A stretch of 64,000 nt of DNA from an uncultured bacterium. GTDB taxonomy: Bacteria; Elusimicrobiota; Elusimicrobia; Elusimicrobiales; Elusimicrobiaceae. Below the pieces are notes generated by a model. The model saw nothing but the letters and a program-made list of their open reading frames with translations. It was not told the origin of the DNA and did not search any database. The position numbers and the translations under genes are program-made. The DNA is taken from contig CASFFZ010000007.1 in assembly GCA_949294095.1 (NCBI GenBank), forward strand, positions 1 through 64,000, in the 5' to 3' direction. Of the stretch, positions 35,724 to 64,000 are shown piece by piece. Positions within the stretch are counted from its first letter, which is position 1, and each line of letters opens with the position of its first letter.

Positions 35724-36617
35724 ATGACTACACCTATGCCCCAGTGGCTTAAAGATTTAGTGGGCCGCAACAAAGCGGCCTTGCGTTCCAGCGCGGCTTT
35801 GCACGCGCAGCAGTCCATTGACCAACACCTGCTGCATACCGTCTGCCATGCCGCCCGCTGCCCCAACCGGGGGGAATGTTTTAATTGCGGCGATGCGACA
35901 TTTATGGTATTGGGCGATATTTGCACGCGCGGCTGCCGCTTTTGCGCGGTTAGCAAAGCGCGCCCGCTGCCGCCCGATGAAAACGAACCCGAACGGGTGG
36001 CGCAGGCCGTAAAAGAGTGGGGCATCCGCTATGCGGTCTTAACCATGCCCACACGGGATGATTTAAAAGACGGCGGCGCCGCGCATTTTGCGCGCGTGAT
36101 TAGAGCCATCAAAACGCTTACGCCGCAGGTAAAAGTGGAACCGCTGATTTCGGATTTGCGCGGCGATGTGTCCGCCCTGCAAACCGTTTTGCAGGCCGGC
36201 CCGGATGTGCTGGCGCACAATGTGGAAACGGTGCCCGACTTATATGCGGCCGTGCGCATAGGGGCCGATTACAAAAGAACGCTTACGCTATTGGAAAATT
36301 CCAAAAAACTGGCGCCGCATATTTTTACCAAAACCGGCTTTATGGTAGGGCTGGGGGAAAGCGACGGGCAAATTCGTGCCTTGATGCGCGATTTGCGCGC
36401 GGCGGGGGTGGATTTATTGACCATCGGACAGTATTTGGCGCCGTCCGCGGCGCACTATCCGGTGGCGCGCTACCCCGAGCCGGCCGAATACCGCGCGTGG
36501 GAAGAATATGCCCTGTCCATCGGATTTAAAGGAGTAGCCAGCGGGCCTTTGGTGCGCAGCAGCTATCGGGCCGGGGCGCTTTACGCACGGGCGGTCAGCG
36601 GCGGCGTGTCCAAATAG
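35724..36617 (+). CDS. lipA: Lipoyl synthase
   Basis: LipA inserts two sulfurs into protein-bound octanoyl groups to form lipoyl cofactors. The 297 residues hold both [4Fe-4S] sites: the auxiliary cluster C41-x4-C46-x5-C52 and the radical-SAM cluster C67-x3-C71-x2-C74, plus the conserved C-terminal RSSY (residues about 284-287) whose Ser ligates the auxiliary cluster. No lipB or lipoate-dependent dehydrogenase gene lies in the window. Confidence 0.96.
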   Translation: MTTPMPQWLKDLVGRNKAALRSSAALHAQQSIDQHLLHTVCHAARCPNRGECFNCGDATFMVLGDICTRGCRFCAVSKARPLPPDENEPERVAQAVKEWGIRYAVLTMPTRDDLKDGGAAHFARVIRAIKTLTPQVKVEPLISDLRGDVSALQTVLQAGPDVLAHNVETVPDLYAAVRIGADYKRTLTLLENSKKLAPHIFTKTGFMVGLGESDGQIRALMRDLRAAGVDLLTIGQYLAPSAAHYPVARYPEPAEYRAWEEYALSIGFKGVASGPLVRSSYRAGALYARAVSGGVSK

Positions 36618-36642: not shown

Positions 36643-36987
36643 ATGAAGAAAAATATATTTTTCTTAGCGGCCGTAGCGGTGCTGGCGGCCGCCTGTGCCG
36701 GCAATCCGCCGGCGTGGTGGAACCCCGGCAATGCGTATTCGTCGGGCGCTGCTGCCGACTCTTCCCGTTCGGAAACTTCCGGCCGGGTAGAAATGAGCAC
36801 GCCCGCCCAGCAGGAAATCTATATCCCGCAGGAAGTGGATATTGCGCCCCTGCCGGACGAAAGCTACGAAGAAATGATTTTAACGCCTTTGCAGGATGAG
36901 GAAACCGAAAACGACTCCGGCGAATCTTCCGCCCAGAGCGCGCCTACCGAAACCGCCTTCCTGCCGCCGCCTAGCGTATTGGAATAG
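36643..36987 (+). CDS. Small acidic lipoprotein of unknown function
   Basis: 114 residues with a clean lipoprotein signal (MKKNIFFLAAVAVLAAAC, lipobox LAAAC, Cys18), then a Gly/Ser/Pro-rich stretch and an acidic C-terminal half (PLPDESYEEMILTPLQDEETEND). No family is recognised. It has its own -10 box just before the ATG and a terminator after the stop. Confidence 0.75.
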   Translation: MKKNIFFLAAVAVLAAACAGNPPAWWNPGNAYSSGAAADSSRSETSGRVEMSTPAQQEIYIPQEVDIAPLPDESYEEMILTPLQDEETENDSGESSAQSAPTETAFLPPPSVLE

Positions 36988-36995
36988 TTTTTCAC

Positions 36996-37025
36996 AAAAA
37001 CCCGGTGCCAAGGCATCGGGTTTTT
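36996..37025. terminator. Bidirectional terminator (lipoprotein / ncRNA)
   Basis: AAAAACCCGGTGCC-AA-GGCATCGGGTTTTT can end the lipoprotein transcript on the plus strand and the RNA gene on the minus strand. Confidence 0.85.
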
Positions 37026-37516
37026 TAAGGGTATAAAGCGGAACCCCCCGGTTATTCAAACCGAGGGGTTCATCTTAACGTCTCCATTCTCACTCCTTCA
37101 CTGCTTATCTGCTTCTCTCAGGATAGGCCCAACCAACTGATTACCGGGACTTATGCCGCTTCTCGTTTCCACTCGGCCGAAGCAATTACATCAACCGCCG
37201 GAAACCCGCTATACACGACTTTGTACGACGTAACCCTCTTGCCGCACTACACCGCTTTACGTCTGCGCGTCGGCGCCCTAACTTCCAGACGGAACAACAC
37301 TTAGCGCCCTGCCCCGTCCGCGGCCAGATACGTCCGGCCCCATGCCTTACCAAGCTCCCGGACAGTTACGTAACCCAACCATCCTGGCTTTCCCTAGCGC
37401 ACAGGCCAACTTCTTCCGGCTCGGCACCTTTACAACAACAGCAACACTGCCTCACGTCACCGCTTTTGTCCGCTTACCAAGCAGCCCCCGGCAGGGCCTA
37501 CGGACTTACTTCCTGT
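36996..37516 (-). ncRNA. Probable large structured RNA, unclassified
   Basis: About 500 bases with no open frame of note but with its own sigma-70 promoter (TTGAAA-16-TATACT, 37523-37550) and a terminator at the other end. The minus strand is G- and purine-rich like a structured RNA. Helices I can see include TAGGCCC (37494-37500) with GGGCCTA (37124-37130), CGTCTG/CAGACG (37260-37265 with 37287-37292), the local hairpin CTGCTTGGTAAGCGG, and a 3' hairpin at 37042-37070. Four short blocks occur twice in the same order: GCTTGGTAAG, a GTGTTG/TTGTT block, GTAAAG(C)GGTG and GGGTTACGT, spaced about 125-175 bases apart, so the RNA seems built from a duplicated module. I could not match it to RNase P RNA, tmRNA, SRP RNA or 6S RNA. 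Confidence 0.6.
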
Positions 37517-37522
37517 ATGGAT

Positions 37523-37550
37523 AGTATAAGTGGAATTTAAAACTTTTCAA
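37523..37550 (-). promoter_or_regulatory. Promoter of the structured RNA
   Basis: Minus-strand TTGAAA (37545-37550), 16 bases, TATACT (37523-37528). It follows the glyS terminator, so the RNA is not part of the glyQS transcript. Confidence 0.6.
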
Positions 37551-37590
37551 GGGGTAATTTTACCGTCGGGAAAGCAAAAAATCTTAAATA

Positions 37591-37619
37591 AAAAACCCGG
37601 CTCAATCAGCCGGGTTTTT
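37591..37619 (-). terminator. glyQS terminator
   Basis: AAAAACCCGGCT / AGCCGGGTTTTT, 12-bp stem and 5-base loop, 16 bases past the glyS stop. Confidence 0.9.
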
Positions 37620-37634
37620 TATGAATGTAATAAC

Positions 37635-39713
37635 TTACAGTTTGGTAATGTCCGCCACCGTCTGCGTCAGGTAGCGGCGCACCCGCGCCAACAGCGCCAA
37701 GCGGTTTTGCCGCACGGCCGCATCCGGCACGTTGACCATGACGTCTTTAAAGAACATTTCCAAAGGTTCTCTAAACGCGCCGTAGGTCTTAAGAATGCGC
37801 AGGTATTCTTCCTGCGTGCAGGCGGTGTGTACCGTGCAGCCCAGTTGGCCGTCCACCTCGTGGATTTTGTCGTACAACGCTTTTTCCGCCGGCAGTTCAA
37901 ACAGTTTTTCATCCACCGTTTCGGTTACGTTGTCCGCCTTTTTAAGGAGGTTGCATACGCGTTTGGCCGGTTCCAACAGCTGGGCGAAATCTTCGCCCGT
38001 TTTAACCGTTTCCAGTGCGCTCACCAACGCCTCTGCTTGCGCAAGCGGCATTTCATACCAATTAATAACCGCATTTAAGGCCGCCGGCGTATGGCCGCGC
38101 TGTTCCAATACCAAGGACAAACGCTGATACAGAAAGCCCGGCAGTTCTTTTAAGCCTTTATCCGGCGTACCGGCCGGATACAAAGAGGCCGATTTTTCCA
38201 CCAATTCTTTAAGCGACACGTTCATTTTGCCTTCCAGCAGGATGCGCACCGCGCCAAAGGCTTGGCGGCGCAGGGCGAAAGGATCTTCGCTTCCCGTCGG
38301 GATTTGGCCGATTAAAAAGTTGCCTACCAAGGTGTCTAGTTTCCCGGCCAGCGATACCACGCTCCCCGGCAGGGTGGACGGCAACGCCGAAGAAGACGTA
38401 AGCGGATAGTAAAATTCTTCCATCGCTTGGGCGGCGTCTTGGCGGCCTTCCAAGGCGGCATATTGCCCGCCCATATAGCCTTGCAATTCGGGAAATTCGT
38501 ACACGACGTGGCTGGCCAAATCGGCATAGGCGTGCGAGGCCGCATAGTCCACGGTACCACGCAGAGAAGCCTGGCCCAGCTTATCGCACAGCCAATCCGC
38601 CAATTGCTCGGTGCGGGCCGATTTTTCGTACATGGATCCCAGCCCTTCCAGAAATTGCACGTTTTTGAGTTTTTCTTTAAACGTTTCCAGCCCGTCTTTT
38701 TTGTCGTTTTCAAAGAAGAACACCGCGTCCGAGAGGCGGGCGGACATCACTTTTTTAAACCCGTCGCGCACTTCGTTTTGGTTGACGGAAATCCCGTCGC
38801 GCACGGCGATGAAATACGGCTGCAGTTCGCCCTTGTCGTTTAGGACGGGGAACATTTTGATTTGTTTCTTAAGCACCGTGGTAACCAATGCTTTGGGCAG
38901 GGTTAAAAATTTAATTTCAAAATCGCCGCCTACGGCCACGGGATGTTCGGTAAACCAGACGGTTTCTTCAATTAATTCCGGGTCTAAGTCGGCTTGGCAG
39001 CCGCGCACCTTGGCTTCGTTGGAAACGGTCTTAATCAACGCTTCTTTGCGTTCCTGCGGCAGCACCAAAATGGGCTGCGGCTGGGAGCGGAGCAAGTCCA
39101 CATAATAGGCTTTGTCGGCTTTTTCCACTTTAATCGGCTTGCGGCCGAAGGAAGAAAGCGGATAGGTGTTGCGGTTGGACGTAACGCCGGCTACCGTAAA
39201 TTTGACCACCTTGCTGCCGTAAAGCCCGATGAGCGAGCGGATCGGGCGGCCGTAGCGCAGGCCCGATTCTTCCCACACCATATTTTTGGCAAATTCCAAC
39301 CCGGTAACGATGCGGGTAAAAATTTCCGGCAGGAGTTTGACCGTTTTTTCGCCTTTGATTTTGACTACCGCATAGATAAAAGGGCCTTTTTCCGTTTCTA
39401 CGACGGTCAATTTTTCGGGAGCGATGCCGTTCTTTTGCGCAAACCCGGCGCTTTGGGGGGTAAAATGGCCGTTGGCATCTTTTAACAGTTTGGCCGGCGG
39501 CCCTTTTACTTCTTTTTGCACGTCGGCCGATTTTTCGGCCAAGTCTTCTATATACACGACTAAGCGGCGGTACGTGCCGAAAGATTCCACCGATTTATAA
39601 GCAATTCTTTTTTCGTCCAACAGTTGGGCGGTTAACGTTTCCAGTTGCTTTAAGGCAGGCGCCATAAAGCGGGCGGGCAAGTGTTCTACGCCGATTTCCA
39701 GCAAAGCATTCAT
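37635..39713 (-). CDS. glyS: Glycyl-tRNA synthetase beta subunit
   Basis: The 692-residue beta subunit of the bacterial alpha2beta2 GlyRS binds tRNA-Gly and carries editing/HD-like and anticodon regions. Recognisable blocks are [14 protein letters not shown] (4-17), [13 protein letters not shown] (about 70), [43 protein letters not shown] and a C-terminal DALR-like anticodon domain. Its ATG overlaps the glyQ stop by 4 bases. Confidence 0.96.
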
Positions 39714-62200: not shown

Positions 62201-64000
62201 TACACGATTGCAAACAATCCACCTGCCACGACTGCAGCGCCTGCGCGGCGGCACACGGGCAGGAAACGCACCCGGAAGAAAACGGATGGAAAAAATTGGC
62301 TTTGGCGGGGGTGTTATTTGCGGCCGCACTGCTGATACCGGCCGGATTATGGGTAAAACTGCCGCTCTACATTATTTCGTATCTGATTTGCGGATGGGAA
62401 GTGCTGGTTAAATCGCTTCAAAATATCCGCCAAGGAAAAGTTTTTGATGAAAACTTTTTGATGGCCATCGCCACCCTGGGCGCTTTTGCCATCGGCGAAT
62501 ATCCCGAAGCGGCGGCTGTGATGCTGTTTTACCAAATAGGGGAAATGCTGCAGGAAGCCGCCGCCGGCAAATCGCGCCGAAGCATTGTAAAATTAATGGA
62601 CTTGCGGCCGGACTTTGCACGCGTCATTCGCAACGGAAAAGAAGAAAAGGTCTCCCCGCAGGACGTGCAAATTGGCGAAACGACACTCGTCCTTCCGGGG
62701 GAACGGATCGCTTTGGACGGGGTGGTGGTGTCCGGCTCCGGGCATATTGATACGTCGGCCCTTACCGGCGAATCGCGCCCGGTCGGCGCAAAAGCCGGGC
62801 AAGAAGTGCTGGCCGGCTGCATTAGCGTAGACGGCACGCTGCACATCCGCACGCAAAAGAGCTATGCCCATTCGGCGGTAGCCAAAATTTTGGAACTGGC
62901 CGAACATGCCGCCAGCAAAAAATCTTCTGCCGAAAAATTCATCACCCGTTTTGCCCGCATTTATACGCCCGCCGTGGTGGCGGTGGCGGTATTGGTGGCG
63001 GTTATTCCGCCGCTGGTTTGGGCGGATGCGTCGTTTAAAACGTGGTTTTACCGGGCGCTTATCTTTTTAGTCATTTCGTGCCCGTGTGCGCTGGTGTTAT
63101 CGGTTCCGCTGGGATTTTTTGGCGGAATTGGGGGGGCTGCCAAAAACGGTATTTTAATTAAAGGCGGCTCTTATCTGGAACGTTTGGCGCACATCTACAC
63201 GCTGGCATTGGATAAAACAGGCACCTTAACACAAGGCGTGTTTGAAGTAACGACGGTGGTACCGGCGGCGGGTGTTGCGCCGGAAGAAGTGCTGCAGCTG
63301 GCGGCCCGGGCAGAAGGGCATTCCAACCACCCGGTGGCCAAAGCCATTTTGCATGCGGCCAAAGCCCAAAAACGCCCCTTAGCAGAAGGGGAAAGCGTGC
63401 TGGAACGTGCCGGCGAAGGAATTGAGTATAAGCAAGGGCAGGACGTTATTTTGGCCGGGAACGCACGCTTGCTGGAGCGGTTTGGCGTCCAAGGAATGCA
63501 AGCCGGAAGCGGTACCTGCGTATATGTAGCGCAAAACGGCGTTTACAAAGGACGTTTGGAACTGGGGGACATGCCTAAGCCCGGGGCCAAAGAAGCCGTA
63601 AAAGAATTAAACAAGCTGGTTAAACAACTTGTCATTTTAAGCGGGGATCAACCCTCCGCCGTTGAAAAAACCGCCCAGGAATTGGGCATTACAAAGGCTT
63701 ACGGCGGGCTTTTGCCGGCCGGCAAGGTGGACAAAGTGGAAGCGCTCATTGCAAATGTCCCGAAAGGAGCCGTAACGGCTTTTGCGGGAGACGGCATCAA
63801 CGACGCCCCGGTGCTGGCCCGGGCCGATTTGGCCCTGGCGATGGGGGCATTGGGCTCGGACGCCGCCATCGAAGCCGCCGACGTAGTGCTGATGACCGAT
63901 GAAATCCAAAAGATTGCCGCCGGGATACGAATCTCCCGCAAAACCCTGCGCATCATTAAGCAAAATGTAGTATTTGCGCTGGCGGTAAAAGCAGGCGTAT
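62197..64000 (+). CDS. P1B-type Zn/Cd-exporting ATPase (cut at window end)
   Basis: The gene is open from ATG 62197 to the last base (601 codons). It has the CPC metal site (C295-P-C297), the phosphorylation site D339-KTGT, HP (SNHPVA, about 372) and GDGINDAP (from 531). The order and SPC/CPC type fit ZntA/CadA exporters. In place of a full HMA domain the N-terminus is a short Cys/His cluster (C5, C10, C13, C16 with H3, H11, H20, H25). Only the last helices, including any KTG..D site residues, are missing. It is co-translated with the repressor. Confidence 0.93.
   Translation, partial: MIHDCKQSTCHDCSACAAAHGQETHPEENGWKKLALAGVLFAAALLIPAGLWVKLPLYIISYLICGWEVLVKSLQNIRQGKVFDENFLMAIATLGAFAIGEYPEAAAVMLFYQIGEMLQEAAAGKSRRSIVKLMDLRPDFARVIRNGKEEKVSPQDVQIGETTLVLPGERIALDGVVVSGSGHIDTSALTGESRPVGAKAGQEVLAGCISVDGTLHIRTQKSYAHSAVAKILELAEHAASKKSSAEKFITRFARIYTPAVVAVAVLVAVIPPLVWADASFKTWFYRALIFLVISCPCALVLSVPLGFFGGIGGAAKNGILIKGGSYLERLAHIYTLALDKTGTLTQGVFEVTTVVPAAGVAPEEVLQLAARAEGHSNHPVAKAILHAAKAQKRPLAEGESVLERAGEGIEYKQGQDVILAGNARLLERFGVQGMQAGSGTCVYVAQNGVYKGRLELGDMPKPGAKEAVKELNKLVKQLVILSGDQPSAVEKTAQELGITKAYGGLLPAGKVDKVEALIANVPKGAVTAFAGDGINDAPVLARADLALAMGALGSDAAIEAADVVLMTDEIQKIAAGIRISRKTLRIIKQNVVFALAVKAGV

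What the first reader, a model, noticed from the sequence alone, without database searches (positions are those of the whole stretch)
36996..37516. Unclassified ~500-nt RNA gene built from a duplicated module
A long stretch without coding frames has its own promoter (TTGAAA-16-TATACT), a terminator, a long-range helix (TAGGCCC with GGGCCTA, almost 370 bases apart) and a G-rich strand. On the minus strand four blocks appear twice in the same order: GCTTGGTAAG (37473-37482, 37346-37355), a GTGTTG/TTGTT block (about 37434-37446, 37293-37300), GTAAAG(C)GGTG (37425-37433, 37250-37260) and GGGTTACGT (37368-37376, 37228-37236). I found no RNase P, tmRNA, SRP or 6S hallmarks. A large ornate RNA with internal duplication may be new or a diverged known class.
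Basis: partly seen in the sequence, partly recalled or inferred. Interest (0 to 1): 0.65.

Follow-up and report, generated by a model that had tools for sequence, protein, structure and literature searches.

The report
Structured RNA ending in five-codon gene
A gut bacterium carries a large folded RNA of unknown class, kept throughout its genus, that ends in a tiny ribosome-ready reading frame of exactly five codons pressed against its stop signal; two otherwise unrelated RNAs in the same genome end the same way, which suggests a new way of coupling structured RNAs to ribosomes.

Summary
The RNA gene is real and unclassified. No Rfam family covers it, and the genome has its own RNase P and tmRNA elsewhere. 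A model of its 3' core finds it in 56 of 66 genomes of the genus (Elusimicrobiaceae, UBA1436-like gut bacteria) and convincingly in no genome outside it. It usually lies between glyS and lipA, under its own promoter. Covariation is strong: 98.4% of cells paired, and 27 pairs with compensatory changes against 9 in shuffles.

Of 35 distinct versions 34 have exactly five codons, encoding 32 different peptides with all three stop codons in use. Two otherwise unrelated RNAs in the same genome (about 170 nt and about 430 nt) end the same way.

Best reading: a new family of structured RNAs that recruits a ribosome to a docking site between the closed RNA body and the terminator. Existence and constraint on the mini-ORF are well supported; translation, expression and the docking function are inferred.

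The parts
37523..37550 (-). Promoter: -35 TTGAAA (37550-37545), 16-nt spacer, -10 TATACT (37528-37523)
   Evidence: 10/12 consensus; conserved in 12 homologs with the same spacing; -10 TATACT/TATAAT in distant members
37035..37516 (-). Inferred transcript of the structured RNA (start ~7 nt after the -10; end after the terminator)
   Evidence: Inference from promoter and terminator; homologous stretches of ~350-540 nt in congeners; no transcript data
37494..37500 (-). P1, 5' strand (TAGGCCC) of the long-range helix closing the RNA body
   Evidence: equivalent closing helix in all 27 members tested
37124..37130 (-). P1, 3' strand (GGGCCTA)
37124..37500 (-). Structured body: multi-helix domain closed by P1
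   Evidence: 154 pairs, 98.4% paired, 27 pairs with two-sided changes vs 9.0 in shuffles, 0/500; MFE z=-4.5
37175..37196 (-). Most conserved element: hairpin GGTTGATGTAATTGCTTCGGCC
   Evidence: Pattern in 44 of 66 genus genomes and 6 of 275 other phylum genomes; named hits are nearly all Elusimicrobiales/Elusimicrobiaceae MAGs
37093..37097 (-). Shine-Dalgarno site AGGAG, 5 nt before the ATG
   Evidence: Sequence; GGAG/GGAA conserved in family members
37070..37087 (-). Five-codon ORF ATG GAG ACG TTA AGA TGA (METLR*)
   Evidence: 34 of 35 distinct family ORFs are exactly five codons, 32 peptides, stops TGA/TAA/TAG; background ~3 independent hits in 1.06 million strand-bases
37041..37071 (-). Terminator hairpin GAACCCCTCGGTT-TGAAT-AACCGGGGGGTTC, overlapping the last two bases of the stop codon; followed by CGCTTT
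   Evidence: (helix 19); longer T-runs follow it in congeners
37635..39713 (-). glyS (glycyl-tRNA synthetase beta chain by recalled homology), upstream neighbour on the same strand
   Evidence: used as synteny anchor
36643..36987 (+). Small lipoprotein-like ORF, convergent neighbour
35724..36617 (+). lipA (lipoyl synthase by recalled homology), second synteny anchor; the RNA stays beside it when glyS has moved

Best explanation
This is an independently transcribed structured RNA of about 480 nt, conserved in its genus. A multi-helix body is closed by a long-range 5'/3' helix (P1). After P1 comes a linker of 29-62 nt with a Shine-Dalgarno site and a five-codon ORF, whose stop codon abuts or overlaps the intrinsic terminator hairpin. 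SHOWN by comparison: the fold, the autonomous promoter and terminator, and selection to keep a start, a stop and a fixed short frame while the peptide changes. INFERRED: ribosomes initiate on this tail. The linker is about one ribosome footprint long, so one ribosome is held between the folded body and the terminator hairpin, and the RNA works at or through the ribosome (for example presenting its body to a translating ribosome, or tying its level or activity to translation capacity). Two RNAs with different bodies in the same genome carry the same kind of tail, so the tail looks like a reusable ribosome-recruiting module.
For: Covariation: 98.4% of cells paired, 27 pairs with two-sided changes vs 9.0 shuffled, 0/500; the sliding control falls to about 40% paired. 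3'-core model R1 hits 56/66 genus genomes at E<=1.5e-10 (30 of the sequences built the model). Mini-ORF: 35 distinct DNA versions, 34 of exactly five codons, 32 peptides, stops TGA 24, TAG 6, TAA 5. Length variants stay in frame: 4 codons in L038, 8 in L065, L075 and L161. In 1.06 million strand-bases of other sequence the same architecture occurs about three times, and none of those has five codons. Same tail in two other RNAs of this genome: C11:4329-4559 (MTLMS*; R2 hits in 60/66 genus genomes) and C10:161145-161451 (MEESTR*; stops TGA/TAA/TAG; MAETK* by in-frame codon loss). C11 relatives in sister genera keep an in-frame short ORF. RNase P and tmRNA of the same genome lack such a tail. 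P1-to-stop linker 29-62 nt in 27 members.
Against: No expression, ribosome-profiling or probing data were available. Predicted accessibility of the Shine-Dalgarno site and ATG is uneven (mostly 0.3-1.0 unpaired; L062 ATG 0.05). In the window itself the U-tract after the terminator is weak. No protein partner or phenotype is known. The 29-62 nt linker fits a footprint only loosely.
Confidence: 0.45

Rival explanations
1. The mini-ORF is translated, but only to serve the RNA in cis: the ribosome protects the 3' part from nucleases or tunes termination at the adjacent hairpin. The body does an unrelated job.
For: ORF position is fixed against the terminator. A two-codon minigene acting in cis, possibly by mRNA protection, is reported for axe-txe (PMC8708949).
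Against: RNase P and tmRNA genes of the same genome lack the tail, so it is not a general need of stable RNAs here. Termination interference has no conserved downstream target: genes beyond the terminator are convergent and differ among the three RNAs.
Confidence: 0.25
2. The RNA is a minigene regulator: translating the five-codon ORF causes peptidyl-tRNA drop-off or sequesters ribosomes, or the short polar peptide itself acts.
For: Peptides are mostly polar: K, T, S, E, Q, N make up ~69% of residues, hydrophobic 15% vs 21% expected from composition. Minigene drop-off is established for E. coli and lambda (own knowledge).
Against: 32 different peptides and varied last codons argue against a peptide-specific or tRNA-specific action. 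It does not explain the conserved body.
Confidence: 0.12
3. The tail is a protein-binding purine-rich element plus terminator (Hfq-like), and the ORF is a by-product of motifs such as AGGAG...ATG...TRA-ACCCC.
For: The linker is A/G-rich (A 44%, G 26% in codons 2-5), and an A-run before a terminator can yield TAA/TGA.
Against: Stops change among TGA, TAA and TAG; length variants are multiples of three in three RNA families and in sister genera; no family sequence was seen with the stop lost.
Confidence: 0.08
4. It is a leader or attenuator of a downstream gene.
For: A short ORF followed by a terminator is the anatomy of amino-acid attenuators.
Against: No gene follows on the same strand; all three RNAs in this genome point at convergent genes. 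The C7 RNA is inverted relative to its neighbours in some congeners. Codons are not biased to one amino acid.
Confidence: 0.03
5. It is a strongly diverged member of a known class (RNase P, tmRNA, 6S, SRP, OLE, GOLLD or ROOL).
For: Large ornate RNA with a closed body; 6S and small SRP were not detected elsewhere in this genome.
Against: RNase P (209.7 bits) and tmRNA (131.6 bits) lie elsewhere. No Rfam match covers the body convincingly even at E<=10. 6S and SRP RNAs are far shorter (own knowledge).
Confidence: 0.05

Closest known systems
Large ornate bacterial RNAs (OLE, GOLLD, ROOL; PMC12286853)
   Same: Hundreds of nt, complex conserved fold, orphan function; OLE binds ribosomal protein bS21 at a Shine-Dalgarno-like mimic (PMC12054373)
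   Different: No Rfam match; found here only in one Elusimicrobiaceae genus; ends in a start/stop-constrained five-codon ORF, which is not part of the descriptions of OLE, GOLLD or ROOL known to me
Dual-function sRNAs with small ORFs (e.g. SgrS; survey in PMC5521070)
   Same: Structured RNA plus a short ORF
   Different: The surveyed ORFs are 10-50 aa and are held to make functional peptides; here five codons with no conserved peptide, at the 3' end against the terminator
Minigenes / two-codon mini-ORFs (axe-txe, PMC8708949; lambda bar minigenes from own knowledge)
   Same: Translation of a few codons matters, peptide does not; possible cis protection
   Different: Those lie in leaders or inside mRNAs; here they end autonomous structured RNAs and are kept across a genus
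tmRNA
   Same: Structured RNA with an internal mini reading frame
   Different: The genome has a separate canonical tmRNA; this RNA shows no tRNA-like end or tag consensus, and has a Shine-Dalgarno site and ATG

Membership tests
RNase P RNA (RF00010) | Match to the covariance model at this locus | tested here: not met
   No match at 36950-37650 with E<=10; the real gene is at C1:44710-45052, 209.7 bits
tmRNA (RF00023) | Model match with tRNA-like end and tag ORF | tested here: not met
   Not found by ARAGORN or Rfam here; the real gene is at C1:159752-160098, 131.6 bits
6S RNA (RF00013) | Model match | tested here: not met
   No match at this locus or in the whole genome; the C10 RNA was also tested, no match
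SRP RNA (RF00169) | Model match | tested here: not met
   No match here or in the genome; RF01854 was not searched genome-wide
OLE / GOLLD / ROOL | Match to their Rfam models (all Rfam 15 families were scanned) | tested here: not met
   E<=10
Large structured bacterial RNA (as a kind) | Covariation-supported conserved fold outside protein-coding sequence | tested here: met
Large structured bacterial RNA (as a kind) | Expressed as a discrete stable transcript | not testable with these tools
   No RNA data; promoter and terminator conserved
Dual-function (coding) sRNA | ORF under selection to stay open with start, ribosome-binding site and stop | tested here: met
Dual-function (coding) sRNA | Conserved, functional peptide | tested here: not met
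   32 different peptides among 35 ORF versions
Ribosome-mediated attenuator | Co-directional regulated gene downstream of the terminator | tested here: not met
   Convergent genes follow at C7, C10 and C11

The most novel reading that the evidence does not exclude
Elusimicrobiaceae possess a class of otherwise unrelated structured RNAs (at least three per genome here, ~170 to ~480 nt) unified by a shared 3' module (Shine-Dalgarno site, about five sense codons, stop, terminator) that docks a ribosome on each RNA. This would be a previously unrecognised kind of ribosome-tethered regulatory RNA, defined by a translated tail and not by a peptide.
Probability: 0.4. Interest if true: 0.92.

Novelty: new variant of a known kind. 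Interest (0 to 1): 0.77.

Why it matters
Five-codon ORFs are far below every annotation threshold, so RNAs of this kind would be filed as purely noncoding and their coupling to translation missed. The case gives a clean test of whether structured bacterial RNAs can be tethered to ribosomes by a sequence-independent mini-ORF, and a search rule (SD, ~5 codons, stop, terminator at the end of an RNA gene) that can be run on any genome. It may also bear on the open question of what large ornate RNAs do, given that OLE RNA binds a ribosomal protein.

Tried and rejected
Internal duplication as an organising principle: rejected, not conserved. Helix between 5' CTATCCATAC and the ORF start (invariant in 12 sequences): most of that 5' strand lies upstream of the inferred transcription start, so it is probably promoter sequence. 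6S identity of the C10 RNA (suggested by GGTCCGTCCGCTTAAAACC-like stretches): not supported by Rfam, and the RNA is too long (~430 nt). First alignment A1 mixed strands because loci were not oriented; discarded and redone as A3. mafft-qinsi unavailable. Weak R1 matches outside the genus and several second matches inside it (L186, L187, L188, L190, L191, L192, L195, L196) look like protein-gene ends plus terminators. An MKTF* mini-ORF in the window at 62432 appears to lie inside a coding stretch and is a chance hit. The whole genome was not available as a file and I did not piece it together from stretches, so the number of mini-ORF-tailed RNAs per genome is a lower bound. Viral contigs: no match to the core motif.

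Full report
CHECK OF THE OBSERVATION. On the minus strand the stretch is led by TTGAAA-16-TATACT (37550-37523) and has no long reading frame. The long-range helix is there: TAGGCCC at 37500-37494 and GGGCCTA at 37130-37124. The fold is more stable than 100 shuffles (z -4.5). The RNA's own terminator is the hairpin 37071-37041; the hairpin near 36996-37025 sits by the convergent lipoprotein gene. The claimed duplicated module consists of real letter repeats, and a chain of three collinear 9-mers was not reached in 200 shuffles, but 6- and 7-mer chains are at chance. The two best repeats exist only in this genome and its 97%-identical relative. It is not a design feature of the RNA.

IS IT A KNOWN RNA? 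No Rfam family reaches its threshold. With E up to 10, matches fall mostly on the flanking terminator hairpins or are weak partial ones (in the body: PVT1_2, E 0.9). The genome has RNase P at C1:44710 (209.7 bits) and tmRNA at C1:159752 (131.6 bits). 6S and small SRP were not found anywhere in it by their models, so the lack of those matches at this locus is by itself weak evidence.

CONSERVATION. Starting from glyS, I read the downstream region in congeners. Eleven close relatives share 79-97% identity with the window's RNA, and a profile from these twelve finds homologs of about 350-540 nt in roughly 40 downstream regions. A covariance model of the 3' core (R1) matches 56 of 66 genomes of the genus at E<=1.5e-10; the best match outside is 1.5e-5 and looks like a protein end plus terminator. 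Thirty of the matched sequences built the model. The motif GGTTGATN(2-5)TKSTTCGGC occurs in 44 of the 66 genus genomes and 6 of 275 other phylum genomes. Named records carrying a stricter form of it are nearly all Elusimicrobiales/Elusimicrobiaceae MAGs, one of them UBA1436. The RNA usually lies between glyS and lipA; where these are apart it can stay beside lipA, and in some genomes it is inverted relative to its neighbours. So it is an autonomous gene.

STRUCTURE. On 12 sequences the consensus has 154 pairs with 98.4% of cells paired. 27 pairs have changes on both sides, against 9.0 in column shuffles (0 of 500), and sliding the partners drops pairing to about 40%. P1 itself is invariant among those 12; a closing helix between the 5' end and the region before the Shine-Dalgarno site is found in all 27 members tested, with changed sequences (e.g. 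CAGG/CCTG versus CAAGCC/GGCTTG).

THE TAIL. After the closing helix comes a linker of 29-62 nt up to the stop codon that holds a Shine-Dalgarno site, an ATG, four sense codons and a stop; the terminator stem starts at or just after the stop. In the window this is AGGAG (37097-37093), ATG GAG ACG TTA AGA TGA (37087-37070). Across the family 35 distinct DNA versions were read: 34 have exactly five codons, they encode 32 different peptides, and stops are TGA 24, TAG 6, TAA 5. Other versions seen are MSNS*, MNAGN*, MVSTK*, MVCSGCGC*, MGCCSGAV*. Length variants keep the frame. The same architecture turns up about three independent times in 1.06 million strand-bases of other sequence from these genomes, and none of those has five codons. 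All four inner codons vary freely while start, length and stop are kept, so what is preserved is a short translation event and not a peptide.

TWO MORE RNAs WITH THE SAME TAIL. R1 also weakly hit RNAs whose bodies differ. One is a ~170-nt rod-like RNA, G000:C11:4329-4559 in this genome (61 of 66 genomes by DNA search, 60 by model R2), with 18 of 44 pairs showing two-sided changes and the tail ATG ACx xxx ATG AGC TAA (MTLMS*, MTQMS*, MTRMS*, MTYMS*; one in-frame codon loss). Weak R2 hits in two sister genera again end in an in-frame short ORF and terminator (MSKLTN*, MSTPVN*, MTIVSQTN*). The other is a ~430-nt RNA, G000:C10:161145-161451 (27 of 66 by DNA), with MEESTR*, MEELTR*, MEESTK*, MERLEN*, MEELAK*, MEQSTN*, MAETK*, and stops TGA, TAA and TAG. 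In this genome all three start with a TATAnT box and point at convergent genes. RNase P and tmRNA do not carry the tail.

HOW IT MOST LIKELY WORKS. Shown by comparison: structure, autonomy, and selection on a mini-ORF. Inferred: ribosomes initiate there. A ribosome protects roughly 20 nt upstream and 15 nt downstream of the A of the AUG (established knowledge). A linker of 29-62 nt with 15 nt of sense codons before the stop is about the room one ribosome needs between the folded body and the terminator stem. I therefore read the tail as a ribosome dock. What the docked RNA then does (regulates the ribosome, is regulated by it, or is protected by it) is open. The main rival is that translation only protects or shapes the RNA's 3' end; a two-codon minigene has been proposed to protect its mRNA in axe-txe (PMC8708949). 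Peptide action is unlikely given 32 peptides. An attenuator is unlikely because no co-directional gene follows.

NOVELTY. Large orphan RNAs (OLE, GOLLD, ROOL) and dual-function sRNAs are known kinds; OLE binds ribosomal protein bS21 through a Shine-Dalgarno-like mimic (PMC12054373). A survey of coding sRNAs considers ORFs of 10-50 aa (PMC5521070). Searches of the paper library found nothing on structured RNAs of Elusimicrobia nor on terminal five-codon ORFs; that library is incomplete. I file it as a new variant of a known kind, and give 0.4 to the reading that the shared tail defines a new kind of ribosome-tethered RNA.

LIMITS. The genomes are mostly metagenome-assembled. No RNA or ribosome data were available. 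The number of such RNAs per genome is a lower bound. The alignment-based structure of distant members is rough because no structural aligner was available.

Noticed in passing
G000:C11:4329-4559 (L199, L194, L242): ~170-nt rod-shaped RNA with its own promoter, mini-ORF MTLMS* and terminator, in 60 of 66 congeners; no Rfam match at E<=1. Unclassified RNA family in its own right.
   Followed up: partly
G000:C10:161145-161451 (L226, L243): ~430-nt RNA with mini-ORF MEESTR* and terminator; parts of its group-B relatives resemble 6S RNA by eye, but Rfam does not support it.
   Followed up: partly
L239, L240, L241 (sister genera): Weak relatives of the C11 RNA outside the genus, each still ending in an in-frame 6-8 codon ORF plus terminator.
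   Followed up: partly
own genome G000: Neither 6S (RF00013) nor small SRP RNA (RF00169) is detected by its model, although RNase P and tmRNA are; these may be diverged or hidden among unclassified RNAs.
   Followed up: no
L053, L054, L073, L074, L075, L076, L160, L161: One sub-lineage has cysteine- and serine-rich mini-peptides (MHSCN, MHSCC, MYSCC, MGCCSGAV, MVCSGCGC) and an inverted RNA in several members.
   Followed up: no
G005:C25:264-493 versus G005:C129: G005 holds two copies of the C11 RNA, one 98% identical to that of G000 near the end of a contig: probably contamination of the MAG or recent transfer.
   Followed up: no
window 37550-37510 and promoters of the C10 and C11 RNAs: The three mini-ORF-tailed RNAs have similar start regions (TATAnT followed by AnTAGTA or similar), hinting at a shared promoter type.
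   Followed up: no
window 62432 (+): SD, ATGAAAACTTTTTGA and a hairpin; appears to lie inside a coding stretch and is a chance match.
   Followed up: yes
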